NCBI GenBank assembly: GCA_003153555.1
Contig: PLZS01000064.1
Span: 92,105-156,104 of the forward strand
DNA: 64,000 nucleotides
DNA from: Candidatus Melainabacteria bacterium
GTDB taxonomy: Bacteria; Cyanobacteriota; Vampirovibrionia; Obscuribacterales; Obscuribacteraceae
Reading direction: 5' to 3'
In this document: in pieces, positions 7,001-32,753 of the stretch
How positions within the stretch are numbered: the stretch's first letter is position 1
Layout of the letters: every line of letters begins with the position of its first letter
Position numbers and translations under genes: made by a program
The notes under the pieces: generated by a model
Seen by the model: only the letters and a program-made list of their open reading frames with translations
What the model was told of the DNA's origin: nothing
Database searches by the model: none

Positions 7001-7212
7001 TGCACCTGTATTGAGCGAAGCAAGAAAAAGGTATTACAGGCTACTTGGAGCCCTGGTAATCTCAACATTAACGCGAATTATTTTCGCAGGTAAAAGAGCC
7101 CACGTCCAGTCTTTACGGACTTTTGTTTGCAAGATCGCTTGACAATTGGGCCGGCTGGTCAAGTTCTCCTCCGTAATTTGGGCATAACTAGGACACAATG
7201 AGGAGTTCGGGT

Positions 7213-8289: not shown

Positions 8290-8417
8290 GTTACGGCAGC
8301 TTTCAAGAGCTGATCGCGAATTCCTCATCAGTTAAGCCTATCGGCGTATGTCCTCTTGAATGCCAAACTTAAACCGATCGTGGTATTCTTTCATATGCCT
8401 CCTTGCAAGACCACTTT

Positions 8418-8497
8418 GGGCGAGTGGCGGAATTGGCAGACGCGCTAGACTTAGGATCTAGTCCGCAAGGGTCAGGGTTCAAGTCCCTGCTCGCCCA
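8418..8497 (+). tRNA. tRNA-Leu (anticodon UAG)
   Basis: Acceptor stem GGGCGAG (8418-8424) pairs with CTCGCCC (8490-8496), followed by discriminator A; CCA is not encoded. The D-arm contains AATTGGCAGA. The anticodon stem CTAGA/TCTAG encloses loop CTTAGGA, giving anticodon TAG. The T-arm is CAGGG-TTCAAGT-CCCTG. The 3' part from 8446 is duplicated at 50756, marking it as an integration target. Confidence 0.95.
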
Positions 8498-8506
8498 ATC
8501 AATCAG
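8446..8506 (+). repeat. Left attachment-site core (attL), overlaps tRNA-Leu 3' end
   Basis: 61 bp identical to 50756-50816, running from the anticodon stem of tRNA-Leu to ten bases past the mature 3' end. The sequences diverge upstream (C versus A at the base before) and two of the next three bases after the repeat differ. Confidence 0.92.
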
Positions 8507-8510
8507 AGTT

Positions 8511-8536
8511 TCCGCCGAAAGGCGGATTTTCTTTTT
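8511..8536 (+). terminator. Rho-independent terminator after tRNA-Leu
   Basis: TCCGCC-GAAA-GGCGGA hairpin with a stable GNRA-type tetraloop followed by TTTTCTTTTT. A near-identical copy follows the right-hand tRNA fragment at 50821. Confidence 0.9.
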
Positions 8537-8551
8537 AGAGCTGTTGATGCA

Positions 8552-8574
8552 AAAGGTAACACAGGAGTAACAAA
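8552..8574 (+). promoter_or_regulatory. Putative integrase arm-type binding site, left end
   Basis: A 23-bp sequence with two GTAACA units matches 50598-50620 at 22 of 23 positions in the same orientation. It lies 46 bp inside the left core, as arm sites of tyrosine recombinases do. The role is inferred from position and repetition. Confidence 0.55.
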
Positions 8575-8773
8575 GATAGAAATCAACGTCTCCATCAGGG
8601 AGCGAAAATTCATCGCTGCGAGTGAGGGACGACCTGTAAAATCGTCTTAAATCCGTTTACGGACCAATATTCAATCCAGGGCTATTTTCAGTAATTATGG
8701 AAACCGAGTACTAGCATTGATTCAGTAGTTGCCGCCAGCAGTATCACGCATCTTGAACTTAGGGGACGTTGAA

Positions 8774-12616: not shown

Positions 12617-15098
12617 TTCCGCGCATGACGCAGTTGCAAATCACGCAGCGCGGCACCTATTAAAGCGGGCTCGAACGCTAAACGTAAACAACATGTGGCT
12701 CATGTCTTCGTTGATAAAAACTATTACTAGAACTTATCAGGCCTGCCCCGTAGAGTCACTGGAGATAATCCGCCAATCTCTTAGACCTCCTGAGCTTCCG
12801 GTGTCTGGATTTTTGGAACTTGAGTGGCTGGTTGATGATTTAAAGATTTTACTGAACGCGAATCCCACATTAGTTGCCGAAATTTATCAGGCGGCCTTTT
12901 CATTCGAAGTGACTAGCGATGAGCCGTTAGCATTTGGAGCCAGTATTCTATTACCTCTATCATCGACTCCACAACAAGTCTTCAATATGACGCGTCGACA
13001 GTTAATCGATGGCTTCGGAGACTTTTTAATTAAGGAACCCGAACTAGCTACGCTGGTCATGCTTTCGATAATGACAAATTATATCGAGGCTGAGCACACG
13101 CTCGACAGGACGAACAAATGGTATCAACCAAGAACATGGGCAACACCGGGTGAAACTCACACCCTGAAACCAGATTTGTGCGCAATCTGGGGAACGCTGC
13201 ATAGTCATTACTCGCCACCAGCACTTGGCGATATATTCGAAAAGAAGCTCCTGTCCATGATTGAAGAAGGAGGTGCCGGTGCCGTTGTTACCATATTATT
13301 ATCGTTGATGAAAAATGCCGAATATGCATATTTCTGGCGAATCATTATACGAACTGCACTGCACCTTGATGTCGAAAAAATTTCCGACTTAAAAATTCTC
13401 GAAGCACTTCCGCTTCTTTTATGTGACGACACTCTGGTACCAATGTGTAACTTGATAGATGCAATCTACGAAAAAATAGATAACGGCACAAAAGTACGGA
13501 TAGAGAAATATTTGCTTGAATCAAGTGCAGATGAGGTCGAAAAGACGCAAAAGAACAAAGTCGAAATACGCTTTCTGGGACAAATTGGAGCGAGATTATT
13601 CACTGATGAGGCAAAAACAAAGTGGCACCAGCCAACTAACAAACAAAGCTCACTATCTAAACTGACGGCTCCCTCTTCGTTCTTTGAAAATTCTTTAGCA
13701 AGTTCAAACGAACTTCCGAAAGAGATTTTTGACTTACTTGGAACTTTGCGCTCTTATAGTTTCGGTCACACAGACATTGAGCAGACTCGGCTTTTTAGTT
13801 CTTTCAAAACATTATACGATTTCGCATCAAATGAAAAAAATAAAGACGAGCCAAAAGAATCTGTTCTGTCGGCGTTGGCATTTGCTGGACAGAAGGCTGC
13901 TAAGAATGTGAATGAGCTAGCCTCGACAGATCAGCGTCAATTGTTAAAACGATTACTAATTCTTACAACAACTAGCAAATTTCCTAAAGCCGATACGAAC
14001 GATGTCATAGACCTTGCGACAGGAACTCGAATTGATGCCGTCGAAGGGTTGCTAGCGATGGGACGAACGAAGGAGTTGGTCGATGAGGAATATCTCCAAA
14101 CAATTGAAAGACTGCTGACTGATCCAAACAGCAGTGTCAGATCCCGCGCCTTCTATTTCCTTTGGAATTTGTTTGAATGTGAACGCGACTTTGTTATTGC
14201 CAAACTTTCCCTGGCGACTGTCACCGAACCAAGCGAACTCGTGCTGAGCCAAATGGTGAATTCGTTTTATGTACTATGTGGCATGGAGCCAGATTGCATT
14301 CTGAGATTAACCAGATGCGTTTGGCATCGGATACGCTATACAGAGTCAGCAAAAGATGGAAGGCATGGTTGCATGGGAATTTTTCTCGGTCTGGCACTAG
14401 GGCGAAATATGACTTCTGGTACTAACACACTTCATTACATCAATCACCGAATAGTAAGCTTTATTGATGATATTCAATTTCTTCTTGCAAATCTTTCTGA
14501 AGGTTTAGCGCTTCGATTTCAGCCTGAAGGTTTCAACCGTGCAGAAATGCAAAACAACACCATCGACTTTGCACTACAGGTGGTGACACATGTTGAAGAC
14601 GAGTTTGCGAAATTGTCCGAAAGTAACTTTGGTGACAAAGAATTGACACGAGCGTTAGCAAGCTGTTCCATGAACCTAGCACTTTCCATCTCGAACGCAT
14701 TGGACTTGTTTCGTCAAGATCAGGAAACCTTTGCTCAGAACACAACGGAATTGCTTCTAAAACTTTCGCCGGTCATTGAAACACTCGCAAGACTTGGATT
14801 TCCAGAGACAGTGCATTACATCATCGATACTCTTTCGCCAGTAGTTGAGTTGCTGCCGGAGCAGATACTAATTTGGATTGCGGAGTTCGCCAAATCTGCC
14901 GAAAAATTTGGCTATCAAAATGACCGCCTTGCAGCGGATCAAATAATTGCACTCTTACATCGCTACTTAGCTGACTTCCGCCACATATTCCAGGAGCAAG
15001 TTGAATGCCGAGATGCTTTGCTTGACATTCTGGACACGATTGTTGGTTGGCCCGAATCGAGAACCCTCGTACATCGACTGGACGAAGTTTTCAACTAA
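12609..15098 (+). CDS. Large helical-repeat protein coupled to the STAND ATPase
   Basis: 829 residues, almost entirely predicted alpha-helical, with HEAT-like stretches such as 'LLTDPNSSVRSRAFYFLWNLFE'. No catalytic motif is recognised. Its ATG lies within the last codons of the STAND gene (8-nt overlap, different frame). The opening reads like a natural continuation of the STAND protein's helical C-terminus, so the two may together equal one long STAND-plus-sensor protein. Role as ligand sensor or regulatory arm is an inference from that arrangement. No gene follows on this strand for 248 bp. Confidence 0.65.
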   Translation: MSNSAHDAVANHAARHLLKRARTLNVNNMWLMSSLIKTITRTYQACPVESLEIIRQSLRPPELPVSGFLELEWLVDDLKILLNANPTLVAEIYQAAFSFEVTSDEPLAFGASILLPLSSTPQQVFNMTRRQLIDGFGDFLIKEPELATLVMLSIMTNYIEAEHTLDRTNKWYQPRTWATPGETHTLKPDLCAIWGTLHSHYSPPALGDIFEKKLLSMIEEGGAGAVVTILLSLMKNAEYAYFWRIIIRTALHLDVEKISDLKILEALPLLLCDDTLVPMCNLIDAIYEKIDNGTKVRIEKYLLESSADEVEKTQKNKVEIRFLGQIGARLFTDEAKTKWHQPTNKQSSLSKLTAPSSFFENSLASSNELPKEIFDLLGTLRSYSFGHTDIEQTRLFSSFKTLYDFASNEKNKDEPKESVLSALAFAGQKAAKNVNELASTDQRQLLKRLLILTTTSKFPKADTNDVIDLATGTRIDAVEGLLAMGRTKELVDEEYLQTIERLLTDPNSSVRSRAFYFLWNLFECERDFVIAKLSLATVTEPSELVLSQMVNSFYVLCGMEPDCILRLTRCVWHRIRYTESAKDGRHGCMGIFLGLALGRNMTSGTNTLHYINHRIVSFIDDIQFLLANLSEGLALRFQPEGFNRAEMQNNTIDFALQVVTHVEDEFAKLSESNFGDKELTRALASCSMNLALSISNALDLFRQDQETFAQNTTELLLKLSPVIETLARLGFPETVHYIIDTLSPVVELLPEQILIWIAEFAKSAEKFGYQNDRLAADQIIALLHRYLADFRHIFQEQVECRDALLDILDTIVGWPESRTLVHRLDEVFN

Positions 15099-15346: not shown

Positions 15347-18300
15347 GTGGAAATCATTGACAACATCAACTCTTTGCTGGGTGATGATCTGAAGACTTCT
15401 ATAAAGTCCAAAAGCCGAATAAAGGTCGCAGCATCATGCTTTTCGATTTACGCTTACGAGGCGCTGAAATCCGAACTAGCCAAGATCGAGTCCCTGGAGT
15501 TTATTTTCACAGCACCCACTTTCGTGCCGAACGAGGTCACTGATAAGCTTCGAAAGGAGAGTAGAGAATTTTTTATTCCTAAGTCCAAACGAGAACGTAA
15601 TTTATATGGTTCCGAGTTTGAGATTCAACTTCGTAATAAACTGACCCAGAGAGCCATCGCTCGCGAATGCGCGGAGTGGATCCGGACCAAGGCCAAGTTT
15701 CGGTCTAATAAAACGAAATCCCCAATGCAACAGTTCGCCTGTGTCCTAGGGTCAGCCTCCGATGTCGCTTATATGCCACTCCATGGCTTCACTGCCGTGG
15801 ATTTGGGCTATCAACGAGGGGACGCCTTTTCCAATATCGTAAATCGATTTGATGAGGCGACGTTTACTTCGACATACCTGCAGCTTTTTGACCAACTTTG
15901 GAATGACCCCGGTAAGCTCGAAGATGTCACCTCAACTATTTGTGAGCATATTGCTTCGGTCTATCAAGAAAATTCTCCTGAGCGAGTTTACTTTCTGATG
16001 CTATCTAACATCTTCGGAGAATTTCTAGAAGATGTAGATGAGGACCTCTTGCCTAACGATCAAACAGGTTATCTAGAGACGCTTGTTTGGAAAAAGTTGT
16101 TCAATTTTCAGCGCGATGCCGCAATCGGTATAATCAACAAATTAGAAACTTACAATGGCTGTATTCTTGCCGACAGTGTTGGTTTAGGAAAAACCTTCAC
16201 TGCCCTAGCTGTTATCAAATACTATGAGCTGAGAAATCGCTCAGTCCTCGTACTGTGCCCCAAAAAGCTTGCGGATAACTGGAACAATTACAACAGCAAT
16301 CTTACGACTAATATTTTTTCGAAAGATCGCTTTAATTATGACGTTCTCTGCCATACGGACTTATCCCGAACTACTGGCGAATCATTTGGGATCCCACTAA
16401 ATCGCATCAACTGGGGCAACTATGACCTTATCGTGATCGACGAATCGCATAATTTTCGCAACAACGAAGCAGTAAGAGATCGAGAAACACGCTATCAAAA
16501 ATTGATGAATAATGTGATTCGCCAGGGTGTCAAAACAAAGGTATTAATGTTGTCCGCCACTCCGGTTAATAATCGATTCAATGATCTGCGCAACCAACTG
16601 GCACTCGCTTACGAAGGAGACTCTGAAAATCTTCGCAAAAAGCTTCGCTCTGGAAAGGCGGTGGAAGAAATATTCCGAAATGCTCAAACCGTCTTTAATC
16701 AATGGTCTCGACTACCGACGGAAAATCGCACAACCAAAGCCATCCTTGATTCTCTCGATTTCGACTTCTTTGATTTATTAGATAGTGTAACCATCGCTCG
16801 CTCACGAAGACACATACAGTCCTTTTACGACACAACAGAAATTGGTCGGTTCCCCGAGCGCCGCAAACCGCTGTCTTATCATTGTCCACTCACAAATCGT
16901 GATGACGTTCTGAATTTCAACGACATTTTCGAACAGCTGTCGTCACTCAAGCTTTCTGTCTACGCGCCCATCAGTTATATCCTGCCGAGCCGACGCAAAA
17001 GGTATGAGGACTTATACGACACCTCTGCCAAAGGTGGTGATGTCAGATTTCGACAACTTGATCGCGAACGAAGTCTTCAGGCTTTAATCACTACCAATTT
17101 GCTCAAACGTCTCGAAAGTTCTGTAGAGGCGTTTCGTTTAACTCTTCAAAGTTTGCAAGAAAATCATAATCGCACACTCGGCAGAATTGAACTATTTAAA
17201 ACGAAGGGCGCAGATGGTGCTGCTGTTGCTGACTGGACTCAAAATTTTGACGATCTCGACACGGAAGAGGATCTTGCTTCCGCTTATTTAGGTGATACCG
17301 ATACTGGTGGCAAGGTAAAAATTGAGCTGGCTGACATGGATCTTCCATCTTGGGAGCATGACCTGAAAAGCGATTTGCAAGTCATCAGCGCCTTGTCAGA
17401 CTCAATGGCGCTGGTTACTCCAAAGGATGATGCCAAACTCCAGCACCTCAAGGCTCTTATCCTAAAAAAGATTGAAACCCCTATTAACGAGGGTAATCGA
17501 AAAATACTACTGTTCACTGCGTTCGCCGATACGGCTGACTATTTGTACACGAATCTTGCTGATCACTTGCTTGGCACAAAGGGCCTGCACACTGGAAAGG
17601 TAACCGGAACGAATGTACCTAAATCAACTCTCGGCAAGAGTTATGATTTTCAATCACTTCTGACGTTATTCTCACCACGGGCAAAGGAGAAAAGCCTGGT
17701 TTTACCGGATGAGAAGGCCGACTTAGATCTTCTCATTGGCACAGATTGTATTTCAGAAGGGCAAAATCTGCAGGATTGCGATTACGTTATCAACTACGAC
17801 ATACATTGGAATCCTGTACGGATCATCCAACGATTTGGTCGTATAGATCGAATTGGCTCAACTAATGAGACGATCCAACTGGTGAACTATTGGCCGGACA
17901 TTTCTCTGGATGAATACATCAACCTGAAGGAACGAGTTGAAAACCGTATGGTTATTGCCGATGTTACTGCCACCGGTGACGACAATGTCCTTACTGCCAA
18001 AAGCAGTGACGTGTCCTATCGCAAGGAGCAATTGAGGCGACTTCAGGATGAAGTGATCGAACTTGAAGATTTGAAGACTGGAGTGTCCATAACAGACCTG
18101 GGACTAAACGAGTTTCGAATGGATTTGCTTAATTATGCGAAAACGAATGGTGACTTCAGCATGCCCAACGGCATGCATGCAATTGTTCAAGCCAAGCCAG
18201 AACAAGGATTGCGCCCAGGTGTAGTATTTGCGCTGCGCAACCTTGATCAATCTATCAACATCAATCAGCAAAATAGACTGCATCCCTACTATCTGATTTA

Positions 18301-18625
18301 TGTAGCAGAAGATGGGAAGGTCATAGCAGATCACACAGAAGTCAAATCGATTCTAGATCTTGTGCGCTCAAGTTGCAAAGGTCAAGGCGAGCCGCTCCAA
18401 TCAGTATGTAGAATTTTCAATCAGCTCACTTCTGACGGGCGTGACATGAAAATCTGCTCCGATCTCCTCAACTTTGCGATTCGTTCGATAATCGACGTCA
18501 AGGAACAAAAAGATCTCGATAGTCTGTTCTCAGGCGGTAAGACCACGGCGCTCTTAAACACGATCGCGGGACTAGACGACTTTGAACTTATAGCCTTTCT
18601 CGTAGTGCAGGAAGAGAAAGAATGA
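15347..18625 (+). CDS. SNF2-type helicase with N-terminal PLD-like region
   Basis: 1092 residues. An N-terminal region of about 230 residues resembles the PLD/HKD-like domains that precede SNF2 helicases in defence loci, but no clear HKD motif is seen. The helicase core has Walker A 'DSVGLGKTFTA' (about 275), 'DESHNFRN' (about 364), motif III 'LSATPVNN', and the C-lobe 'TDCISEGQNLQDCDYVINYD' and 'QRFGRIDRIGS' (about 828). It likely translocates on double-stranded DNA. GTG start with AAGAGG ten bases upstream. The stop overlaps the DUF4391 start as ATGA, making it the first gene of a tightly coupled operon with methyltransferases and Res. Confidence 0.85.
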   Translation: MEIIDNINSLLGDDLKTSIKSKSRIKVAASCFSIYAYEALKSELAKIESLEFIFTAPTFVPNEVTDKLRKESREFFIPKSKRERNLYGSEFEIQLRNKLTQRAIARECAEWIRTKAKFRSNKTKSPMQQFACVLGSASDVAYMPLHGFTAVDLGYQRGDAFSNIVNRFDEATFTSTYLQLFDQLWNDPGKLEDVTSTICEHIASVYQENSPERVYFLMLSNIFGEFLEDVDEDLLPNDQTGYLETLVWKKLFNFQRDAAIGIINKLETYNGCILADSVGLGKTFTALAVIKYYELRNRSVLVLCPKKLADNWNNYNSNLTTNIFSKDRFNYDVLCHTDLSRTTGESFGIPLNRINWGNYDLIVIDESHNFRNNEAVRDRETRYQKLMNNVIRQGVKTKVLMLSATPVNNRFNDLRNQLALAYEGDSENLRKKLRSGKAVEEIFRNAQTVFNQWSRLPTENRTTKAILDSLDFDFFDLLDSVTIARSRRHIQSFYDTTEIGRFPERRKPLSYHCPLTNRDDVLNFNDIFEQLSSLKLSVYAPISYILPSRRKRYEDLYDTSAKGGDVRFRQLDRERSLQALITTNLLKRLESSVEAFRLTLQSLQENHNRTLGRIELFKTKGADGAAVADWTQNFDDLDTEEDLASAYLGDTDTGGKVKIELADMDLPSWEHDLKSDLQVISALSDSMALVTPKDDAKLQHLKALILKKIETPINEGNRKILLFTAFADTADYLYTNLADHLLGTKGLHTGKVTGTNVPKSTLGKSYDFQSLLTLFSPRAKEKSLVLPDEKADLDLLIGTDCISEGQNLQDCDYVINYDIHWNPVRIIQRFGRIDRIGSTNETIQLVNYWPDISLDEYINLKERVENRMVIADVTATGDDNVLTAKSSDVSYRKEQLRRLQDEVIELEDLKTGVSITDLGLNEFRMDLLNYAKTNGDFSMPNGMHAIVQAKPEQGLRPGVVFALRNLDQSININQQNRLHPYYLIYVAEDGKVIADHTEVKSILDLVRSSCKGQGEPLQSVCRIFNQLTSDGRDMKICSDLLNFAIRSIIDVKEQKDLDSLFSGGKTTALLNTIAGLDDFELIAFLVVQEEKE

Positions 18626-19317
18626 GACAAATACTCTTCGATTATCCGAAAAATGCGGTGTTCGGACGCGTATTGCCTAAAAGTAAGATCTATCAACATA
18701 CGAATCCTAAAACAGCTCTTAAAGAGTTGTTTATTCGACAGGTGGAGCAAGTTGTTTGGCAGTACAAACTGGCGCCGGAAACCATAAACCTGAGCCCCTC
18801 GCCGACGGTCAGTGAGATTCAGATTTTTACAGTCACTCTCAAAACAGGTGATATTCAACATGACGTACTGGAATGCATAGATCAAGCAATTACGCATCCC
18901 ATTGTGTTCGAGTTGTATTTTGGAGAAAAGGTAAAGGCTATTGCAGCATTTAAGAGTACGAAAAATCCAAACTGTCCAATTAAAATCGTGAGTAACTATT
19001 TTGAAAGCACCTGGATGCCGCGCGAAACAACGCGAATCCCATTGCCTATGGTGCTTGATTTCGATCTGTTATATTCGAGCATTCTCGCCCCTCTATTGCC
19101 GTTTCCAGCTCGCCCTGGCGAACGTTTGGACGAACGCGTGGATAGAATGGAGCAAATTCGCTCCAAACAGCGTGAATTAGAAAAATGCGAAATCTGTCTT
19201 CGTAGAGAAAAACAGTTCAATCGAAAAGTTGCATTGAATGCAGCGCTACGGAAATTGAAACAGGAAATTGAAATTCTTACTCAAGAACAGTACCAACACT
19301 GCAAGGAACAACCATGA
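18622..19317 (+). CDS. DUF4391 domain protein
   Basis: 231 residues matching the DUF4391 pattern: N-terminal 'VLPKSKIY', 'VEQVVWQYKLAPETINL', a central beta region, 'LDFDLLYSSIL', and a C-terminal coiled coil (about 180-223) with 'EKQFNRKVALN'. The biochemical role is unknown; the domain is commonly seen between an SNF2 helicase and a type III-like methyltransferase. It overlaps both neighbours by 4 nt (ATGA at 18622 and at 19314), so it is made in step with them and is probably a subunit. Much of its pattern recurs at the C-terminus of the 1424-residue protein four genes downstream. Confidence 0.85.
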   Translation: MRQILFDYPKNAVFGRVLPKSKIYQHTNPKTALKELFIRQVEQVVWQYKLAPETINLSPSPTVSEIQIFTVTLKTGDIQHDVLECIDQAITHPIVFELYFGEKVKAIAAFKSTKNPNCPIKIVSNYFESTWMPRETTRIPLPMVLDFDLLYSSILAPLLPFPARPGERLDERVDRMEQIRSKQRELEKCEICLRREKQFNRKVALNAALRKLKQEIEILTQEQYQHCKEQP

Positions 19318-21311
19318 TGGAAAAGTTGAAAATGCACTCTCCGAACTTGGTACGGGACAATGTGTCTGTTATTCAGAATCACTTTCCTGATTGCGTAAAG
19401 GAAGTTCATAGCGAAGACGGCACTATAAAACTTGCAGTGGACTTTGATCAACTACGACAAGAGTTATCGGAATCTATTGTAGAGGGTCACCAGGAGCGAT
19501 ACCATCTCGATTGGCCGGGGAAGCGGGATGCGCTTCTAACCGCCAATGCCCCAATCGCTAAAACACTTCGTCCATGTTTGGAAGAGAGCGTTGACTTTGA
19601 TACTACGAAGAATTTATTGATTGAGGGCGACAATCTCGAAGCGCTAAAATTGCTGCAAGAAACCTATCTCAACAAAGTCAAAATGATCTACATCGATCCA
19701 CCCTACAACACACGCAACGACTTCATATACAACGACGACTTTGCTGAAGACGTTGAAGCCTACTTCAAACGTTCCATGCAACTGGACGAAAGTGGAAATA
19801 GGCTCGTGGCAAACACCGAGTCCAATGGAAGATTCCATTCAGACTGGATGTCTATGATTTATTCGCGTCTAAAACTGTCTAGAAATCTTCTCCGTGATGA
19901 TGGGGTAATTTTCGTATCTATAGGCGATGATGAGCAGGCCAATTTGAAAAAAATCTGCGACGAGATTTTTGGGCAAGCTAACTTTCTTGGGTGTGCCTGC
20001 CGGGTCTCAAAGAAAGCTAACAATCAAGGCGATTATTGGGCTCCGAATTTTGACTATGTTTTGAGCTATGCAAAGAACAGGCTTGAGTGCCTACATTTCT
20101 TCGGCGGCGTCAATTACAAAGCATACAAAGAGGTGGACTCTGAAGGTGCGCGAGCAGGCGAACAATACCAACTTCTTCGTCTATACATGACTAGCTTGGA
20201 TCCGATGAGAGGTTGCACAAATCAAAGGTATTACATAAAGGCGCCAGATGGAACACTCTTAATCCCGCCAGGAAATGTTTTTCCGAATGAGTTAGAGGAC
20301 GGTGCCGGTGTTCCGCCGAAAACCGGTGAAGATAAAGTTTGGCGATGGAAGGCTGAGAAGTACAAGACTGAACAGGACAGGATAGTAGTACAACGAGTAT
20401 CTTCGTCCAATTTAATTGATTCAAATGGAAACTCAGTTAAATGGAACGTTTTCACAAAGACTTATCTGAACGACGTTATTAAGAATGCCACCGCGAAACC
20501 TAACAGCTTGATCGAGAATCATATTAATCAAAATAGCTCTCACGAGTTGGGCAAACTGGAGATTCCGTTTAGTTTCGCAAAGCCGTCTTCCCTAATCAAA
20601 TTTCTTTGCGAAATCTCTGGTGTCAAAGGCGATGACATAGTGATGGATTTCTTTGCAGGATCAGGCTCAACGGCCCACGCAGTGTTAGACCTAAACGCCT
20701 CTACATCGTCTAACGTGCGATTCATTCTGGTCCAGGTCGCCGAAGAACTGCAATACGATGATAAGAACCAAAAGGCAGGATTTATTTTTTGCGAAAAAAT
20801 GGATTTCAAAAAAACAATTCCGGAGATAACAAAAGAGCGAATTCGTCGCGTTGGAACAATGATTCGAGCAGAGAACCCAGACGACGAACATACTAAAAAG
20901 TTAGACGTAGGTTTTCGGGTACTGAAGCTTGACTCATCGAATATGAAGGATATTTTTTACACACCAGATGCTATTGAGCAGGGACAATTAAAAATCTTCA
21001 CGGATAACATCAAGCCAGACCGAAGTCCAGAGGATCTGCTTTTCCAGGTGCTACTGGATTGGGGAGTTGATCTGTCACTACCAATTCGCCGAGAAATCAT
21101 CCAAAACAAGTCGGTTTTCTTTGTGGATGATAACGCTCTGCTGGCTTGTTTTGAAGCCGATACAAACGAAGAGTTCTTTCGATATTTGGCTCAATTTGCA
21201 CCACTTCGCGTCGTCTTACGCGATAGTGGTTTTAGTTCAGATTCAGAGAAAATCAACGTAGAACAAATCTTTAAACAACTGTCCCCAGGTACAGAGGTGA
21301 AGTCAATTTGA
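19314..21311 (+). CDS. Type III-like DNA adenine methyltransferase, copy 1 (Mod1)
   Basis: Beta-class N6-adenine methyltransferase with catalytic 'IYIDPPYNT' (DPPYN, about 127-131) before the AdoMet motif 'DFFAGSGSTAHAV' (about 446-452). The region between them, about 215-430, is the target-recognition segment. N- and C-terminal thirds are closely similar to Mod2, for example '[14 protein letters not shown]' and '[16 protein letters not shown]'; the middle is unrelated. ATG at 19314 overlaps the DUF4391 stop. It should protect sites from the Res nuclease. Confidence 0.93.
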   Translation: MMEKLKMHSPNLVRDNVSVIQNHFPDCVKEVHSEDGTIKLAVDFDQLRQELSESIVEGHQERYHLDWPGKRDALLTANAPIAKTLRPCLEESVDFDTTKNLLIEGDNLEALKLLQETYLNKVKMIYIDPPYNTRNDFIYNDDFAEDVEAYFKRSMQLDESGNRLVANTESNGRFHSDWMSMIYSRLKLSRNLLRDDGVIFVSIGDDEQANLKKICDEIFGQANFLGCACRVSKKANNQGDYWAPNFDYVLSYAKNRLECLHFFGGVNYKAYKEVDSEGARAGEQYQLLRLYMTSLDPMRGCTNQRYYIKAPDGTLLIPPGNVFPNELEDGAGVPPKTGEDKVWRWKAEKYKTEQDRIVVQRVSSSNLIDSNGNSVKWNVFTKTYLNDVIKNATAKPNSLIENHINQNSSHELGKLEIPFSFAKPSSLIKFLCEISGVKGDDIVMDFFAGSGSTAHAVLDLNASTSSNVRFILVQVAEELQYDDKNQKAGFIFCEKMDFKKTIPEITKERIRRVGTMIRAENPDDEHTKKLDVGFRVLKLDSSNMKDIFYTPDAIEQGQLKIFTDNIKPDRSPEDLLFQVLLDWGVDLSLPIRREIIQNKSVFFVDDNALLACFEADTNEEFFRYLAQFAPLRVVLRDSGFSSDSEKINVEQIFKQLSPGTEVKSI

Positions 21312-21407
21312 GCAAACACAAAATCTCTGAACTCGGGTTGCTTCGAGAGGAAGCAAGTACGTGAAATTTTTCACCCACTAACACCAATGCTTCAAAGGAC
21401 AAATTTG

Positions 21408-23276
21408 ATGGAAAAGTTGAAAGCGCACTCGTCCAACCTGGCACAGCAAAACGTTTCTCGCATAAAAAACATTTTGCCGAACTGCGTCGTGGAAGCTCGC
21501 GATGAACATGGCAACATCAAGCTGTCCATCGATTTTGATCAACTTAGACAGGAACTGTCCGAGTCGATAGTAGAAGGTCCTCAAGAGCGTTACCATCTTA
21601 ATTGGCCCGGAAAGCGTGAAGCCCTCGTTACCGCGAACACTCCCATCTCAAAAGTTCTTCGGCCCGTCCGTGCAGAGAGCGTAAATTTTGATACCACAAA
21701 AAATTTGTTTATTGAAGGCGACAATCTAGATGCGTTGAAACTTCTTCAGGATACCTACCTTGGGAAGGTCAAAGTAATCTACATAGACCCACCGTACAAT
21801 ACGGGTAACGACTTCATCTACGAGGATAATTTTGCGGAAAACAACGATGCCTTTTTAAAACGAACTGTGCAAAAGGATGACTTGGGAAATAAGCTCGTTT
21901 CAAACACCGAAAGCAATGGTCGCTTTCATTCGGATTGGCTGAGCATGATGTATCCAAGGCTCAAATTGGCAAGGAACTTATTGCAGGACGACGGAGTAAT
22001 TTTCATCAGCATAGATGACAACGAAGTGCCAAACCTGAGAAAAATATGCGACGAGATTTATGGGGTAGAGAATTTTGTCGCTGAGTTTATTTGGAAACGA
22101 CGGGTCTCATCTGCGATGGCAGATAACAATGTTTCTGCAGACCAAGATTATGTCATCTGCTATCAAAAGGGACTGTTAGAGGGCTTCCTGGGTATCGGAA
22201 AGGACTTTAAAAAATACTCGAATCCCGACAATGATCCAAGGGGCCCGTGGATTTTGGACAACCTTACGGTTGGAATGAATTCCTCAATGCGCCCGAACCA
22301 GGCTTATGATTTAGTTGATCCTTCCACAGGAAAAGTCTACCCTTTCAACCCGAATAGAGTATGGGCGTTCATCCCTGAATCAATGAACAGAATGATTAAA
22401 GAAGGGAGAGTTATCTTTCCAAACGATGAATCAAAACGTCCTATGCAGAAACGATTCCAGAATGAACTCAAAAGCAATTACAATCCATTTTCTACGCTCA
22501 TGTTGGATCTGGTAGGTATGAACACCGAAGCGACCCGCACCATTCAAGATTTGATGGGCGGAAATATTTTTGACTACTCGAAACCAGTTTCTCTTCTAAC
22601 CACGTTGATCCCGCAAATCACTACTGGTTCGGACATTATCTTTGACTTCTTTGCGGGTTCCAGCTCAACGGCCCATGCTGTAATACAGCTTAATTCTGAA
22701 GATGGTGGCAATCGGAGATTCATCATGGTTCAACTTCCAGAAGATTGCCCAGAAAAATCTGAAGCCTTCAAGCAAGGCTACAAAAATATTGCCGAACTTA
22801 GCAAAGAGCGTATTCGCCGAGCTGGCAAAAAACTTTTGGACGGCAACCATCACGAAGACTGGAACAAAGACATTGGTTTTCGAGTGCTGCGGGTTGACAC
22901 ATCCAACATTGCCGACGTTTACAGCACACCAGATGAACTTGACCAAATGAAAATCACGTTTCACGCTAATAACATTAAGGCAGATCGTACCCCGGAAGAT
23001 CTGCTTTTTCAGGTGCTTCAGAGCTGGGGCGTAGATCTGTCATTACCTATCAGAACAGAAAACATTCAGGGCACGCCTGTTTTTTTCGTAGACGATAACG
23101 CCCTAATTGCTTGCTTTGCGTCGAACGTCAACGAAGAGTTGGTTAAAACCTTAGCTCGATTCGGGCCACTGCGTGTCGTCTTTAGCGACAATGGGTTTGA
23201 ATCCGATGCTGTCAAAATTAACGCTGAACAGATCTTGAAACAATTGTCACCAGCCACTGAAGTGAAGTCGATTTAG
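21408..23276 (+). CDS. Type III-like DNA adenine methyltransferase, copy 2 (Mod2)
   Basis: 622-residue paralogue of Mod1. DPPYN lies in '[13 protein letters not shown]' (about 127) and the AdoMet motif is '[13 protein letters not shown]' (one Gly of the usual GSGST replaced by Ser). Start chosen at 21408 because AAGGAC precedes it and the protein then begins '[17 protein letters not shown]', aligned with Mod1; an ATG at 21387 would add seven unaligned residues. The central recognition segment (about 215-400) differs completely from Mod1, so a second DNA sequence is probably methylated. It is separated from Mod1 by 96 nt and followed 10 nt later by Res. Confidence 0.92.
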
Positions 23277-26463: not shown

Positions 26464-29400
26464 TTGCAACTGCTGGATGGAAAACCGAGGTTCTCTCCGT
26501 CGGACCTGACTAACTTCATGGAAAGCCGTTTTGTTAGTTACATGGATCGACTTTACTTAATTGGAGATGAGAGAGCAAAAAAGGATCCAGTCGATGAGGG
26601 AATGAGCATTCTCCGCGAACGGGGACTTGCTCATGAAGCGGCTTATTTGAATCTTCTCCGCGAGTCTGGTGTGGATGTTGCAGTGATAGAAGCCGATGGT
26701 ACCAACGGGATAGACCTTACTCAGCAATCCATGCGCGAAGGCAGACAAGTTATCTATCAAGCTCATCTTGCGCATGGTGAGTTTTTTGGAAAAGCTGATT
26801 TTCTAGTGCGAGTCGATGGTCACCATTCTCCGGCGCTTGGAACTGACTACGTTTATGAACCGCTTGATACGAAGCTTGCGTTGACACCAAAGCCGTACTT
26901 TGCAATTCAACTTTGCTGTTATGCTGAAATGCTGGCGTCAATTCAAGGCATTCTACCTGAGTCGTTCTTTATCGTGCTAGGCAACGGATCTTCAAAATCC
27001 TTTCGCACGGAAGATTTTTACTATTTTTATCGACAGCTAAAATGCGAATTTCTTGATTATCACTTGAGCTTTAATATCGATGAAATTCCAGAATTCATTG
27101 AACTCCCGCCCTTTTGCAGCTATCGCGAAGTTGGGAAGGAGATTCTCGAAAAGCGAGACGATCTATCGCGTGTTGCCAACATTCGCAAGAGTAATATCAT
27201 CAAATTTAAAAAGGCCGGAATCACGACGCTTGCCGATCTCGCACAGAGCGAACAGCACAAGATCCTAGGTATGAGCGACGAAACGTTCGATAATCTCAAG
27301 CAGCAAGCGTTACTTCAACTGCGTTCTAGCAACCTACCAAAACCGCTGTTCGAGATAATTGAACCTCGACCGGATGACTTTAGACGAGGATTGGCGTTAC
27401 TGCCGCCACGTTCACAAAACGATGTTTGGTTCGACATGGAGGGCTATCCTCACGTAGAAGGTGGACTTGAGTATTTGTTTGGAGCCAGCTATTTAGAACA
27501 TGACGAACTTAAGTTTTTTGAGTGCTGGGCGCACGATGAAGTTCAAGAAAAGCGGGCCTTTGAAGAATTTGTCGATTGGGTTTTCAGCCGTTTCATGCAA
27601 GATCCAGACATGCACATTTATCACTACGCCGCTTACGAACAGACCGCGCTTCGACGATTGATGGGTAAGTTCGGCTCACGAGAAGCAGAGATTGATCAGC
27701 TATTGCGCCACAACGTATTTATTGATCTTTTTACGATTGTTCGACAAGCGATTAGGGTCGGGGAGCCTAGCTACTCGATCAAAAATATCGAACATCTCTA
27801 TCGTGGGATGCGCACTGGGGAAGTTAGTACAGCTCTTGATTCAGTGGTTTCTTATTACAAGTGGCTCGAATGCAGAGATGGTGAAGATGCGCAGTCGTCA
27901 AGCTTACTTGCGTCTATACGCGACTACAATAAGGAAGACTGTGATTCCACATATGAGCTGTGCACCTGGCTTCTAGCGCTTCAAAAAGAACGAGCAGAAT
28001 TCGCATATATAAAGGCGCCGGAGCCTGGCGATTCAGCAGAGCAAGAGGACGAAACATCCATTCTCGCTAAGCAAGTTCTTGAATTGCACGGCGATGGCGC
28101 ACTGCCAACCATATTGTCGCAGCTATTGCACTTCCATAAGAGAGAGGACAAACCGATCTGGTGGGCGATCTTTGACAAGCGCTCCTGGTCGTCCGATGAA
28201 CTATTTGGGGACCTTGAAAGCATTGCAGAACTCACCGCAACGACACGATGGAACGAGACAATCGGGAAATCAAAGCTTTACGAGTTTGCCTTTGATCCAG
28301 ACCAGGAAACCAAAATCGACATCGGCGACAGCGTATGCTTTTTCTTAGCCGATGGTGGTTTTGCCAACATGACAGTAAAAGAACTTGATTTAGATAACGG
28401 TCGAATTGGGCTAAGTTCGATGAAGGTGACGCCGCCCCGGCGCATGGACATTGTGAAGAAAGATCTTACTGGCATCCCAACTATTCGTAACTCAATATTT
28501 AGGCTGGTATCGGAATACTGCCAGGGGATCGATTTGCCGCCCGCAATAGCTCAGTTTCTTGAAAGGGGAGCACCTCGGATTAAGGATCACGTGGACGGCC
28601 AGCCAATTATCTCAAGACCAAACGAATCACTTCTTCCGCAAGTTATCGATGTAATCAAAAGACTTGATGGGAGTACGTTATGCATTCAGGGTCCACCCGG
28701 TTGTGGAAAGACTTACACTAGTGCTCACGCCATCCTCGCTTTACTCTCAGACGGTATGCGAGTTGGCATTACGTCTAATTCTCACAAAGCGATTGAGCTA
28801 CTTTTGCACACGGTTGCCGAAATCGCACTCACTCAAGGTGTTAGTTTGGATGGCGCTAAAATCGGCATGGATAGTAAAGAACGAGAGCCCCCGATATTTA
28901 AGCATCCAGGAATAGTTTATAAAAGCGATGCAGGAAAAGCCCTAGGCAAATATCAGCTAGTTGGAGGAACAGCTTTCGCCTTCAGCAGAGAAGAAGCAAC
29001 TGATACGTTGGATTATCTATTTGTAGATGAAGCCGGTCAGGTCTGCTTAGCCAATCTCGTTGGTATGTGCCGCAGTGCAAAAAACATTATATTGCTTGGC
29101 GATCAAATGCAATTAGATCAGCCGATTCGAGGTGCTCATCCTGGCGACAGTGGACTATCCACGCTGCAATATTACTTGGAAGACTATTCTGCAACTCCGC
29201 CGGACATGGGCATACTTCTTAGTGTAACAAGAAGGCTACCACCAGATTTATGCTCTTTTATTTCCTCCGCAGTCTATGCAGGTCGGCTTACGAATTCAGC
29301 CAATACTGCCGAACGCAAGCTAATCAACCGGGTGCCCCGGCAGATCGTCCGCGATACCGGGTTGCTTTTTGTGCCCGTAAAACATCAAGGTTGTGTTCAA

Positions 29401-30738
29401 TCAAGTGAGGAAGAAGCAACAAAGATTCTGGAATTGATTGATGAACTAAAGACCTGTCATCTCTCAATCGACGGCACGACTGTACCATTCGTGCCACTAG
29501 ATCACATTCTCATCGTAGCTCCATATAACAAGCAGGTTAGGCTTCTAAAGCGGCTCTTACCGGGAATTGAAATCGGCACAGTTGACAAGTTTCAAGGCAA
29601 AGAAAAGCCGGTCGTTATCGTTTCCATGGCGGAGAGCGATTTAAGTGAATCAGCTAGGGGGATAGAATTCCTTTTAAGTAAGAATCGACTTAATGTCGCA
29701 CTGTCACGAGCGCAAGTACTGGCAATTGTCGTAGCGAATTCGTCGTTAGCATACGTAGACTGTGGCTCCTTAAAAAGCATGTCGCTGGTGAATCTCTTTA
29801 GTCGAATTGTTCAATATGGTTCTACAGCCAGAGAACCTCGAGTAGAAACAGCACCGTTACCTGTAATTGAGCCCGCGGCTTTCGAACAAGAATTAAAAGT
29901 CGAGATGGCACCATCTGTAGTGCCTATGCAAAGGGGTCCATACGGTGCTGGACAAGAAAAAGCGAAGTTGGAGCTTATAATCGATTTCCTCTCACTTCCT
30001 GCAAATGCAAGAGTCGACCAGCGTGTTCCAAAAACCAAGTTAATGGAGAGAGGAGCAAAGACGGCTGCGGATAAGCGGTTGATCCAAGAAGAAATAGAAG
30101 AGCTTACATGGATTGCGTCGTTAGAGTCTGCCAATATTGGAGTTCCTTCTTTCCAAAACGTCGAGAGAGAGTACCTGGAGATAATTATACTGAGTCTGGT
30201 TTTGCGGGGCGGAACCAAGCTGCCACGCATCAGCGAATTGATTCACCGATCAATTCCTAATCCGGTGTTACTTATTGCAAAACACGGGGTGAGCGCCAGC
30301 GTATCGCTTGCGCACAAACGCTGGTCTCAGGATCACTCCAAAGTTCTTATAGACAACGTTCGACGTGCAGACATCTTGCATCCCGAGTCGCCAACTTCAT
30401 TAGAGACGGACTTCCTGAAAAGCCTCTCCCTTCCTGGACTGCCTTGTCTCGATCTGTTCGCAACTTATCAAGGAATGATAGAGAGAATAATGGCTTTCGA
30501 GGCGGCAAAGATTTTCGGCAAATTTATTTTGCCCGATTCGAGTCAGCGAATGACCACGATTGCAACCGCGCTTGAAACTTACACCAGGCTTAGATCGGCA
30601 TTAAACACATTACGAAGTAAAATGGCAAGAGAAAAGCAGTTCAATCGTCGAGTGCTTCTAAACACCGAGATTAAGCGCATTGAAAATGAGCTGGCGACGA
30701 TCGCTGCCGGACTCGCTTCTCAGGAGACGGATTTATAA
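26464..30738 (+). CDS. TM0106-type nuclease-SF1 helicase with C-terminal DUF4391-like domain
   Basis: 1424 residues. Domains in order: RecB-like PD-(D/E)xK nuclease ('GKADFLVRVDG' about 109, 'YEPLDTKLA' about 131); a helix-hairpin-helix-like segment; a DEDD/RNase H-type exonuclease ('FDMEGYPHVEGG' about 323, 'HYAAYEQTALRRL' about 387, 'YNKEDCDSTYEL' about 488); an SF1B UPF1-like helicase ('GPPGCGKTYT' about 743, 'VDEAGQ' about 855, 'VDKFQGKEKPVVIVSM'). The last 240 residues resemble the DUF4391 protein encoded at 18622, including the tail 'EKQFNRRVLLNTEIKRIENE' (1390-1409). TTG start follows GAGGGGG. It lies 130 bp downstream of Res on the same strand, and the shared domain suggests it belongs to the same defence system. 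Confidence 0.88.
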   Translation: MQLLDGKPRFSPSDLTNFMESRFVSYMDRLYLIGDERAKKDPVDEGMSILRERGLAHEAAYLNLLRESGVDVAVIEADGTNGIDLTQQSMREGRQVIYQAHLAHGEFFGKADFLVRVDGHHSPALGTDYVYEPLDTKLALTPKPYFAIQLCCYAEMLASIQGILPESFFIVLGNGSSKSFRTEDFYYFYRQLKCEFLDYHLSFNIDEIPEFIELPPFCSYREVGKEILEKRDDLSRVANIRKSNIIKFKKAGITTLADLAQSEQHKILGMSDETFDNLKQQALLQLRSSNLPKPLFEIIEPRPDDFRRGLALLPPRSQNDVWFDMEGYPHVEGGLEYLFGASYLEHDELKFFECWAHDEVQEKRAFEEFVDWVFSRFMQDPDMHIYHYAAYEQTALRRLMGKFGSREAEIDQLLRHNVFIDLFTIVRQAIRVGEPSYSIKNIEHLYRGMRTGEVSTALDSVVSYYKWLECRDGEDAQSSSLLASIRDYNKEDCDSTYELCTWLLALQKERAEFAYIKAPEPGDSAEQEDETSILAKQVLELHGDGALPTILSQLLHFHKREDKPIWWAIFDKRSWSSDELFGDLESIAELTATTRWNETIGKSKLYEFAFDPDQETKIDIGDSVCFFLADGGFANMTVKELDLDNGRIGLSSMKVTPPRRMDIVKKDLTGIPTIRNSIFRLVSEYCQGIDLPPAIAQFLERGAPRIKDHVDGQPIISRPNESLLPQVIDVIKRLDGSTLCIQGPPGCGKTYTSAHAILALLSDGMRVGITSNSHKAIELLLHTVAEIALTQGVSLDGAKIGMDSKEREPPIFKHPGIVYKSDAGKALGKYQLVGGTAFAFSREEATDTLDYLFVDEAGQVCLANLVGMCRSAKNIILLGDQMQLDQPIRGAHPGDSGLSTLQYYLEDYSATPPDMGILLSVTRRLPPDLCSFISSAVYAGRLTNSANTAERKLINRVPRQIVRDTGLLFVPVKHQGCVQSSEEEATKILELIDELKTCHLSIDGTTVPFVPLDHILIVAPYNKQVRLLKRLLPGIEIGTVDKFQGKEKPVVIVSMAESDLSESARGIEFLLSKNRLNVALSRAQVLAIVVANSSLAYVDCGSLKSMSLVNLFSRIVQYGSTAREPRVETAPLPVIEPAAFEQELKVEMAPSVVPMQRGPYGAGQEKAKLELIIDFLSLPANARVDQRVPKTKLMERGAKTAADKRLIQEEIEELTWIASLESANIGVPSFQNVEREYLEIIILSLVLRGGTKLPRISELIHRSIPNPVLLIAKHGVSASVSLAHKRWSQDHSKVLIDNVRRADILHPESPTSLETDFLKSLSLPGLPCLDLFATYQGMIERIMAFEAAKIFGKFILPDSSQRMTTIATALETYTRLRSALNTLRSKMAREKQFNRRVLLNTEIKRIENELATIAAGLASQETDL

Positions 30739-32120: not shown

Positions 32121-32753
32121 TTAAACGAGCTTTGTCGCACTGTCGCCGACCTTATTCGAATTGCGTTTAACGATGGCACTGACTGTCGACTTACTGATCT
32201 GCATCTTATGACTGATCCATCGATAAGTTCGCCCGTCAGCAACATGTGTCAGAACAAGCTTTGAATACTTGTCACTAGGATTCTGCCCAGGTTGTCGTCC
32301 AAGTTTTTTGCCTCTAGCCCTTGCCGCTGCAAGCCCCGACCTTGTCCTTTCTGATATAAGGTCACGTTCGAACGCAGCAAGAACAGACAAGACTCCCGCA
32401 ATCATCTTACCTTGCGCGGTATCGAGGTCAAACTGATTTCCTGCTTGAGCTATCATCGACACACCTTGGACGTTTAGATCATGAAGCGTGTTTAGCAGGT
32501 CAACTGTGCTACGTCCCCACCTTGTAAGCTCCGTAACGAGAACCGCATCTATTTTTCGGGCTTGAGCAAGTCTCAGCACTTTTGTCCGTTCGATACGCTC
32601 GGGCCTTGCGCCTGATGCTTTCTCTTCAAACACCGCAATCACGTCGTAACCTGCACGCTGTGCAAATGCGTGAAGATCATTCCGTTGCCGCTCGCAACTT
32701 TGATCATCAGTACTGACACGGCAGTAAATTGCAGCTTTCTTTTTTTGTACCAT
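32121..32753 (-). CDS. Serine recombinase (resolvase/invertase family)
   Basis: 210 residues. The N-terminal catalytic domain has nucleophile Ser14 in 'YCRVSTDDQ', then 'ELTRWGRSTVDLL' and 'LSVLAAFERDLISERTRSGLAAARARGKKLGR', the standard resolvase signature. A short C-terminal helix-turn-helix ('ISHKMQISKSTVSAIVKR') binds DNA. It probably resolves dimers or inverts or excises a segment within the element. Upstream lie repeated TTGTACC sequences that could be its binding sites. Two sites 62 bp apart would fit a res-like locus. Confidence 0.92.
   Translation of the reverse strand: MVQKKKAAIYCRVSTDDQSCERQRNDLHAFAQRAGYDVIAVFEEKASGARPERIERTKVLRLAQARKIDAVLVTELTRWGRSTVDLLNTLHDLNVQGVSMIAQAGNQFDLDTAQGKMIAGVLSVLAAFERDLISERTRSGLAAARARGKKLGRQPGQNPSDKYSKLVLTHVADGRTYRWISHKMQISKSTVSAIVKRNSNKVGDSATKLV

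What the first reader, a model, noticed from the sequence alone, without database searches (positions are those of the whole stretch)
30010..30738. DUF4391-like domain fused to the C-terminus of the nuclease-helicase
The last 240 residues of the 1424-residue protein follow the free-standing DUF4391 protein feature by feature: PK(S/T)K(I/L) start, (V/I)E(Q/E)xxW, a beta region, an LxxDLF/LDFDLLY-like segment and the tail EKQFNR(K/R)V. Over a 20-residue tail window 10 positions are identical (196-215 in the small protein versus 1390-1409). This links the large protein to the Mod/Res operon and suggests DUF4391 is a docking or recognition module used twice.
Basis: partly seen in the sequence, partly recalled or inferred. 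Interest (0 to 1): 0.85.

Follow-up and report, generated by a model that had tools for sequence, protein, structure and literature searches.

The report
Docking domain fused to DNA-degrading helicase
A large bacterial protein predicted to unwind and cut DNA ends in a domain (DUF4391) that is also a separate small protein in the same restriction gene cluster; in a related genome the fusion is present and no separate protein was found, so the domain likely works as a plug that would couple the enzyme to an anti-virus restriction system.

Summary
Residues 1176-1410 (window 29989-30693) of the 1424-residue TM0106/SF1 protein match Pfam DUF4391 end to end (203 bits, cut-off 29.9); the core matches without the coiled coil (158 bits). 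The tail is not a copy of the neighbouring DUF4391 gene (21% identity): it belongs to another subfamily, whose nearest free-standing plasmid relatives (41-44%) sit in SNF2-DUF4391-Mod-Res operons. In 22 of 22 loci examined with a full-length free DUF4391, an SNF2 helicase gene is directly beside it. In a second genome (G424/L012) the fusion lies beside SNF2, Mod and Res, and no free DUF4391 was found. None of 19 TM0106 loci without this tail has these partners. The SNF2 proteins lack the HKD motif that their database label implies. Best reading: DUF4391 is an adaptor (inferred) that plugs a nuclease-helicase into an SNF2/type III restriction system. TM0106 is also fused, near the same junction, to BrxL and BrxF of BREX, suggesting a portable cartridge. 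In the window the fusion sits in an operon of the other subfamily, so it may serve a non-cognate partner or be an orphan.

The parts
15347..18625 (+). SNF2-family helicase (1092 aa), first gene of the operon; PADLOC model C3a139 'HKD+Snf2', but no HxK/R-x4-D motif in its first 250 residues
   Evidence: motif scan (0 of 23 SNF2 proteins have it, window included)
18622..19317 (+). free-standing DUF4391 protein (231 aa), start overlaps the SNF2 stop by 4 bases
   Evidence: PF14335 186.7 bits; overlap
19314..21311 (+). type III DNA methyltransferase Mod, copy A (665 aa), start overlaps the DUF4391 stop by 4 bases
   Evidence: PADLOC MTase_III 690 bits
21387..23276 (+). type III DNA methyltransferase Mod, copy B (629 aa)
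   Evidence: MTase_III 775 bits
23287..26334 (+). type III restriction subunit Res (1015 aa) with C-terminal endonuclease domain PF19778
   Evidence: REase_III 1108 bits
26464..30738 (+). fused TM0106 nuclease / SF1 helicase / DUF4391 protein (1424 aa, TTG start that matches the start of its homologues)
26506..27972 (+). TM0106 RecB-like region (residues 15-503): RecB-type residues H57 D112 D135 K137 Q149 Y153, and RNase_H_2 domain (321-503) with DEDDy-type residues D324 E326 Y488 D492
   Evidence: TIGR03491 215.5 bits; the named residues are identical in 12 of 12 proteins compared; the motif names are recalled
28654..29742 (+). SF1 helicase part (AAA_11/AAA_12 and related, about residues 731-1093), Walker A K749 and Walker B D855 E856 present
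29827..29988 (+). linker (residues 1122-1175); five TM0106 proteins without a tail end at the equivalent of residue 1121-1124
29989..30693 (+). fused DUF4391 domain (residues 1176-1410): alpha/beta core, then two long helices with the EKQFNRRV motif

Best explanation
Residues 1176-1410 of the 1424-residue TM0106-type protein are a full-length DUF4391 domain, which likely acts as a docking adaptor that would tether this predicted DNA-degrading nuclease-helicase to the SNF2 helicase of a type III-like restriction operon. Shown: the domain identity, the fusion in seven protein clusters, the SNF2 neighbour of free DUF4391 in 22 of 22 loci, and in G424 a fusion beside SNF2, Mod and Res with no free DUF4391 found. 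Inferred: that the fusion replaced the free gene there; that DUF4391 binds the SNF2 protein (or the SNF2-Mod-Res assembly); that the fused enzyme is thereby delivered to DNA found foreign by Mod/Res and unwinds and degrades it; and that it supplies a nuclease to an SNF2 motor whose own N-terminal 'HKD' domain lacks the HKD motif. In the window the tail comes from a different DUF4391 subfamily than the local SNF2 protein's partner, so there the coupling is either cross-subfamily or lost.
For: DUF4391 in both proteins. Free DUF4391 directly beside SNF2 in 22 of 22 loci: 19 of 19 plasmid loci fetched (checked by phmmer), G349 and G216, and the window; some plasmid loci are near-duplicates (L039/L040, L041/L052, L049/L050). 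Mod found in 19 of 19 and Res in 18 of 19 plasmid loci. G424/L012: SNF2 | TM0106-DUF4391 | Mod | Res, with the fusion as the only DUF4391 match in the genome. Distances among DUF4391 domains track those among SNF2 partners (r 0.945, 0 of 5000 permutations, 23 pairs); partial correlation with SNF2 given Res 0.55, with Mod given Res 0.26, with Res given SNF2 0.08 (20 loci). The tail clade {7 tails, OLGA172, Acetobacter} (100/99) matches the SNF2 clade {G424, OLGA172, Acetobacter} (100/100). 19 TM0106 loci without a DUF4391 tail: none has SNF2 of this family, Mod, Res or DUF4391 in the stretch scanned. A DUF4391-like domain also forms the N-terminus of type IIG enzymes near SNF2 (hhalign 95.6%, E 1.2e-8; control region 0.1%). 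The named RecB, DEDDy and Walker residues of TM0106 are identical in 12 of 12 proteins.
Against: No physical interaction was tested. Only two fused loci have a readable neighbourhood; five of seven clusters do not. In the window the tail fits the G424 SNF2 pattern (0.94) and not the window's own SNF2 (-0.38), and no second SNF2 of the family was found in G000 (genome 87% complete). G424 is 93% complete, so absence of a free DUF4391 is not absolute. Operon genes share history (SNF2-Res r 0.97), so correlated distances do not prove contact. In G424 the SNF2 gene is divergent from the fusion. In the window a 129-base gap separates Res from the fusion, so co-transcription is not shown. The alpha/beta core gave no clear match to a known fold, so no function can be read from structure. 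The type IIG link is weak by Pfam (1 of 4 over the cut-off) and by a shallower profile (19%).
Confidence: 0.6

Rival explanations
1. The fused protein in the window is an orphan or a self-standing defence gene: it came in from a system of the other subfamily and now works without the local SNF2/Mod/Res proteins.
For: Tail and local SNF2 belong to different subfamilies; no second SNF2 of the family in G000 and no Res match other than the window's own, 38% identical to G424's; three unfused plasmid TM0106 genes lie near other defence genes, and TM0106 loci without a tail lack these partners.
Against: The tail is kept intact, with its conserved residues; the gene follows Res on the same strand; the fused subfamily keeps the tail in all seven clusters found.
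Confidence: 0.25
2. DUF4391 is a DNA-recognition or DNA-sensing module, not a protein dock; each copy steers its host protein to a DNA structure such as a Res-made end or unmethylated site.
For: The N-terminus of type IIG enzymes carries a related domain, and those enzymes act on DNA; conserved Lys/Glu residues (small-protein K20 and E65 in 28 of 28 rows, K111 in 26 of 28) could be a nucleic-acid site.
Against: DUF4391 distances follow SNF2 more closely than Res or Mod, and in 22 of 22 loci it is beside SNF2; no DNA-binding fold was recognised, though the core is barely tested.
Confidence: 0.2
3. DUF4391 is a restraining subunit that keeps the helicase or nuclease inactive until phage attack, like an immunity or regulatory domain.
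For: It overlaps the SNF2 stop codon by 4 bases in the window, as tightly coupled partners often do, and no enzyme family matches it.
Against: Fusion to the nuclease in cis is unusual for a releasable inhibitor; no toxicity data.
Confidence: 0.1
4. Chance or coiled-coil similarity only.
Against: The core without the coil scores 157.6 bits, five times the curated cut-off.
Confidence: 0.01

Closest known systems
PF14335 DUF4391 (free-standing proteins of SNF2-DUF4391-Mod-Res operons)
   Same: Full-length profile match, shared order of predicted secondary structure, shared conserved residues and EKQFNRKV-type motif
   Different: Here it is the C-terminal domain of a nuclease-helicase; the free protein has no enzyme attached
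TM0106-family RecB-like nuclease with SF1 helicase (TIGR03491)
   Same: Residues 1-1121 align with unfused near-full-length members at 43-50% identity in the same order and up to 67% in metagenomes over residues 300-1120; same named catalytic residues
   Different: Five unfused members compared stop at residue 1121-1124 and lack the tail; 7 of the 120 best-scoring clusters listed carry DUF4391
TM0106-BrxL (G410, L118) and TM0106-BrxF (P0182) fusions
   Same: Same kind of nuclease-helicase, partner at the C-terminus near the same junction, partner is a named BREX protein
   Different: Partner is not DUF4391; both sit apart from the DUF4391-fused clade in the TM0106 tree; no PglZ was found in G410 and P0182 has no readable neighbourhood
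Type IIG (Eco57I-like) enzymes near SNF2 helicases
   Same: N-terminal domain related to DUF4391 and an SNF2 gene of the same family beside it or one gene away
   Different: Domain is N-terminal, partner is a methylase; the Pfam score passes the cut-off in only 1 of 4 tested
HKD-endoDNase + Swi2/Snf2 (SF2) helicase effectors of Type-2 BREX-related and CxC-ABC systems (PMC12839542, PMC10853773; passages read)
   Same: Restriction-type systems with an N-terminally extended SF2 helicase plus a methylase
   Different: Those papers describe an HKD nuclease in the helicase; the 23 SNF2 proteins here lack the motif

Membership tests
DUF4391 (PF14335) | whole-protein score above the curated cut-off (29.9 bits) | tested here: met
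   203.2 bits fused, 186.7 bits free
DUF4391 (PF14335) | coverage of the whole profile, core included, not only the coil | tested here: met
   profile 1-232 of 232; core alone 157.6 bits
DUF4391 (PF14335) | same fold as the free protein | tested here: inconclusive
   12 of 12 listed elements of the free protein's model recur in order in the tail, which has 2 more; the models were not superposed and their alignments overlapped
DUF4391 (PF14335) | gene neighbour of SNF2 helicase (empirical, from 22 loci here) | tested here: met
   adjacent in G424/L012; in the window the same operon, 7.8 kb away with free DUF4391, two Mods and Res between
TM0106 RecB-like nuclease (TIGR03491) | score above the curated cut-off (97.45 bits) | tested here: met
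   215.5 bits, residues 15-503
TM0106 RecB-like nuclease (TIGR03491) | nuclease and helicase catalytic residues kept | tested here: met
   H57 D112 D135 K137 Q149 Y153, D324 E326 Y488 D492, K749 T750 D855 E856, R1082 identical in 12 of 12 proteins; three other positions tested vary (E132 11 of 12, Q881 10 of 12, R923 8 of 12); motif assignment recalled
TM0106 RecB-like nuclease (TIGR03491) | nuclease and helicase activity | not testable with these tools
   no biochemistry
Type III restriction-modification system (the operon) | Mod and Res subunits present | tested here: met
   MTase_III 690 and 775 bits, REase_III 1108 bits, PF19778 endonuclease domain
Type III restriction-modification system (the operon) | methylation and restriction activity | not testable with these tools
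   no biochemistry
HKD (PLD-type) nuclease in the SNF2 protein (PADLOC C3a139) | HxK(x)4D motif in the N-terminal domain | tested here: not met
   0 of 23 proteins have HxK/R-x4-D in the first 250 residues of the open frame; no PLD family in Pfam for the window protein
BREX | PglZ in the genome | tested here: not met
   no PF08665 match in G000, G424 or G410; the window system is not filed as BREX

The most novel reading that the evidence does not exclude
TM0106 nuclease-helicases are a portable DNA-degradation cartridge that prokaryotic restriction systems load repeatedly by fusing its C-terminus to one of their own subunits: DUF4391 for SNF2/type III systems, BrxL and BrxF for BREX. DUF4391 is the socket that plugs enzymes (nuclease-helicase here, type IIG methylase elsewhere) onto a shared nuclease-dead SNF2 motor, and in the window one operon carries two sockets of different subfamilies.
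Probability: 0.4. Interest if true: 0.82.

Novelty: new variant of a known kind. Interest (0 to 1): 0.64.

Why it matters
DUF4391 is a domain of unknown function; in the paper library it occurs in one paper, as a table entry. The fusion, and the genome in which it stands without a free DUF4391, give a concrete, testable hypothesis: it is an adaptor for an SNF2 helicase. They also suggest that a widespread uncharacterised nuclease-helicase (TM0106) is added to different restriction systems by fusing its end to a system subunit. If so, the partner domain tells which system each such enzyme serves, and the roles of DUF4391 and of TM0106 could be settled by the same binding and phage-protection tests.

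Tried and rejected
Chance/coil explanation: rejected. Tail as duplicate of the neighbouring gene: rejected (21% identity; different clades). Second SNF2 partner elsewhere in G000: none of the family found (the two other matches are under 25 bits). Tail-only hit in G395: a caspase-type protein with a coil, dropped. Weak DUF4391 hit in a sigma-factor ORF of G071: not seen by Pfam, dropped, although an SNF2 gene of the family lies nearby. First genome-contig scan with the tail alone found no relative; a viral-contig scan with the fused proteins found none. Fold search: Foldseek had no match at E <= 0.001; the second-look rows cover mainly the coiled coil, so the core's fold is barely tested and I claim nothing from the absence. 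hhalign of a shallow DUF4391 profile with the type IIG N-termini gave only 19%; the more diverse profile gave 95.6%. BREX membership of the G410 BrxL fusion is weakened: no PglZ in that genome, and the contig ends just after it. Promoter/terminator scan between Res and the fusion: no promoter-like site, and no terminator-like site on the + strand. One search fetched a longer stretch round the BrxL fusion that I did not analyse further.

Not in print: searches gave no paper on DUF4391 function, on TM0106 nuclease-helicases or on these fusions, judged from the listings and from the papers named next; most of the 12 papers listed were not opened. The library lacks most subscription journals. PMC12839542 was read in passages and in part 1 (of 2) of section 35; PMC10853773, PMC2292703 and PMC7784981 in passages only.

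Full report
What was claimed and what is there. Pfam confirms it: PF14335 matches residues 1176-1410 with 203.2 bits (E 7.2e-60) and the separate 231-residue protein with 186.7 bits. Cutting the coiled coil away leaves 157.6 bits for the core, and the coil alone gives 37.6 bits. The two domains align at E 5e-12 with 21% identity; the 10-of-20 tail identity is as stated. In the AlphaFold2 models the 12 elements listed for the free protein (mean pLDDT 78.9) recur in the same order in the tail (91.9), which has two more (a short first strand and helix 140-148). The models were not superposed.

The host protein. Residues 15-503 are a TM0106 RecB-like nuclease region (TIGR03491, 215.5 bits against a cut-off of 97.45), with an RNase_H_2 domain at 321-503 and an SF1 helicase at about 731-1093. 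In an alignment of 7 fused and 5 unfused proteins, the residues that I recognise as RecB-type (H57, D112, D135, K137, Q149, Y153), DEDDy-type (D324, E326, Y488, D492), Walker A (K749, T750) and Walker B (D855, E856) are identical in 12 of 12; three other tested positions vary (E132 11 of 12, Q881 10 of 12, R923 8 of 12) (motif names recalled). The five unfused ones end at the equivalent of residue 1121-1124, so residues 1122-1175 are a linker and the rest is added.

How common the fusion is. A search by the tail found 7 protein clusters, the window's own included, all with PF14335 and with the tail aligned along its length. A search by residues 300-1120 listed the best 120 of 2782 clusters (7992 candidates scored); 7 of these 120 carry PF14335. 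In the order of the window's genome the fusion is in 2 of 53 genomes. In a tree of the nuclease-helicase part the seven fused proteins form one clade (100/99) nested within unfused ones, as one fusion event would give.

What DUF4391 keeps company with. Of the plasmid records with a match (40 for the free protein; 64 for the tail; the sets overlap) I fetched 19. In 19 of 19 the gene directly before DUF4391 is an SNF2 helicase of the window's family; Mod hits are in 19 of 19 and Res hits in 18 of 19. In L045 the stretch is cut at the end of the record before Res; in L037 only a 160-residue Res fragment scores; in L035 an IS element lies between two Res pieces. Some of the 19 are near-duplicates (L039/L040, L041/L052, L049/L050). 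Two genome loci (G349, G216) and the window agree, making 22 of 22 for SNF2. One further locus, G010/L025, is an oddity: a 260-residue ORF joins the first 159 residues of SNF2 to the last part of DUF4391, perhaps a deletion; it is not in the count.

The second fused locus. In G424 (record QKMZ01000001.1, Melainabacteria BJP_IG3402, locus L012) the order is SNF2 (reverse strand), TM0106-DUF4391, Mod, Res. The only DUF4391 match in that genome (93% complete) is the fused one. The fused copy thus appears to stand in for the free protein. This is the strongest single piece of evidence that the nuclease-helicase belongs to the system.

The control. Nineteen distinct loci of TM0106-helicases without a DUF4391 tail (20 fetched, L013 and L113 being the same; one of them is the BrxL fusion L118) were scanned in stretches of 9.4 to 23.7 kb. 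None has Mod, Res, DUF4391 or an SNF2 of this family; one (L014) has a distant SNF2 at 59 bits. One of these genomes (G443) has an SNF2 of the family elsewhere (693 bits). Against 2 of 2 fused loci this gives a one-sided Fisher value of 0.005, with the caveat that the loci are not independent and some contigs end near the gene.

Two subfamilies. The DUF4391 tree puts the seven tails with OLGA172 and Acetobacter (100/99), and the SNF2 tree puts G424 with the same two (100/100); the window's free DUF4391 and its SNF2 are both sister to Methylotuvimicrobium. The window's two Mods and its Res fall with the Methylotuvimicrobium side, and G424's with OLGA172. Distances agree: r 0.945 between DUF4391 and SNF2 over 23 pairs, none of 5000 permutations reaching it. 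The window tail's pattern fits the G424 SNF2 best (0.94) and the window's own SNF2 not at all (-0.38). Over 20 loci the partial correlation of DUF4391 with SNF2 given Res is 0.55, with Mod given Res 0.26, and with Res given SNF2 0.08. These are descriptive: pairs are not independent, and linked genes share history (SNF2-Res r 0.97). G000 has no second SNF2 of this family and no Res match other than the window's, but is only 87% complete with 7% contamination. So the window holds a complete system of one subfamily plus a fused enzyme whose tail is of the other.

Other fusions. DUF4391-like domains also form the N-terminus of Eco57I-type enzymes next to, or one gene from, SNF2 helicases in G087, G136, G109 and G035. 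One of 4 passes Pfam's cut-off; a profile comparison of 18 diverse DUF4391 sequences with five such N-termini gives 95.6% probability and E 1.2e-8, against 0.1% for a control region of three of the same proteins; a shallower DUF4391 profile gave only 19%. And the nuclease-helicase has other C-terminal partners near the same junction: a full BrxL in G410 (L118, NCBIfam 799.9 bits, cut-off 628.25) and BrxF in the metagenome protein P0182 (166.2 bits, cut-off 50). P0143 carries about 640 residues that look like helical repeats; Pfam, PADLOC and NCBIfam scans gave no family there. Unfused TM0106 genes lie in the same stretch as BREX genes (L124, three genes between), type I restriction and McrC genes (L125), and DUF4007 and cysteine desulfurase genes (L126) (3 of 3 plasmid loci fetched, picked from 203 records). 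Among 194 genomes of the class, 23 listed matches have an open frame of at least 1100 residues, and 3 of these exceed 1200: the two DUF4391 fusions and the BrxL fusion. Against this reading: no PglZ was found in G410, so a working BREX system there is not shown.

Mechanism. In 22 of 22 loci free DUF4391 sits beside SNF2, its sequence tracks that of the SNF2 partner, it is fused to a nuclease-helicase that in one genome stands without a free copy, and a relative is fused to a methylase near SNF2. The simplest account is that DUF4391 is an adaptor that holds enzymes onto the SNF2 protein. The two SNF2 proteins scanned (window and G087) match the PADLOC model labelled HKD+Snf2, but 0 of 23 SNF2 proteins have the HxK/R-x4-D motif in the first 250 residues of their open frames; attaching a nuclease-helicase would therefore give the motor a cutting partner. 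Binding, delivery and degradation are inferences.

Relation to what is known. Passages read in PMC12839542 and PMC10853773 describe HKD-nuclease/SF2-helicase effectors and backup nucleases in BREX-related and phosphorothioate-linked systems. The main text of PMC12839542 has 0 occurrences of 'TM0106' and 'DUF4391'. DUF4391 appears in one paper of the library, as a table row. I therefore rate this a new variant of a known kind: a type III-like restriction operon with an adaptor-fused nuclease-helicase.

Noticed in passing
L118:7540-13080 (G410 contig 119): TM0106 nuclease-helicase fused in frame to a complete BrxL (1846 aa); no PglZ found in that genome and the contig ends just after it.
   Followed up: partly
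P0182 (metagenome protein, 1290 aa), residues 1131-1275: TM0106 nuclease-helicase fused to BrxF of BREX-3.
   Followed up: partly
P0143 (metagenome protein, 1762 aa): TM0106 nuclease-helicase with about 640 extra C-terminal residues that look like helical repeats and matched no family in Pfam, PADLOC or NCBIfam.
   Followed up: partly
L024:4291-8169, L023:1152-4667, L030:4062-7775, L028:8467-10890: Type IIG (Eco57I-type) enzymes with a DUF4391-like N-terminal domain, each next to or one gene from an SNF2 helicase of the window's family.
   Followed up: partly
L025:558-1337 (G010 contig 170): A 260-aa ORF joins the N-terminal 159 residues of the SNF2 helicase to the C-terminal part of DUF4391; looks like an internal deletion or misassembly.
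   Followed up: no
window 19314-23276: Two Mod genes in tandem, both of the window's own subfamily and each nearer to the Methylotuvimicrobium Mod than to the other; perhaps two sequence specificities sharing one Res.
   Followed up: partly
the 23 SNF2 proteins: The family is labelled HKD+Snf2 in PADLOC, but the HKD motif was not found in any of the 23.
   Followed up: partly
window 8729-10219: ApeA-like protein with a HEPN domain (Pfam ApeA_NTD1 and HEPN_Apea), near a tRNA-Leu at 8417-8498.
   Followed up: no
window 10277-15098: Two adjacent genes matching mostly successive parts of the PADLOC candidate PDC-M54A, the first with a weak NACHT-like ATPase match: a further candidate defence system directly before the operon.
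   Followed up: no
window 32121-32753: Serine resolvase on the opposite strand after the operon, a possible sign of a mobile island.
   Followed up: no
L029:1256-3532 and 5385-8681 (G071): An SNF2 helicase of the family near an RpoD-like sigma factor ORF that gave a weak DUF4391 hit not confirmed by Pfam.
   Followed up: no
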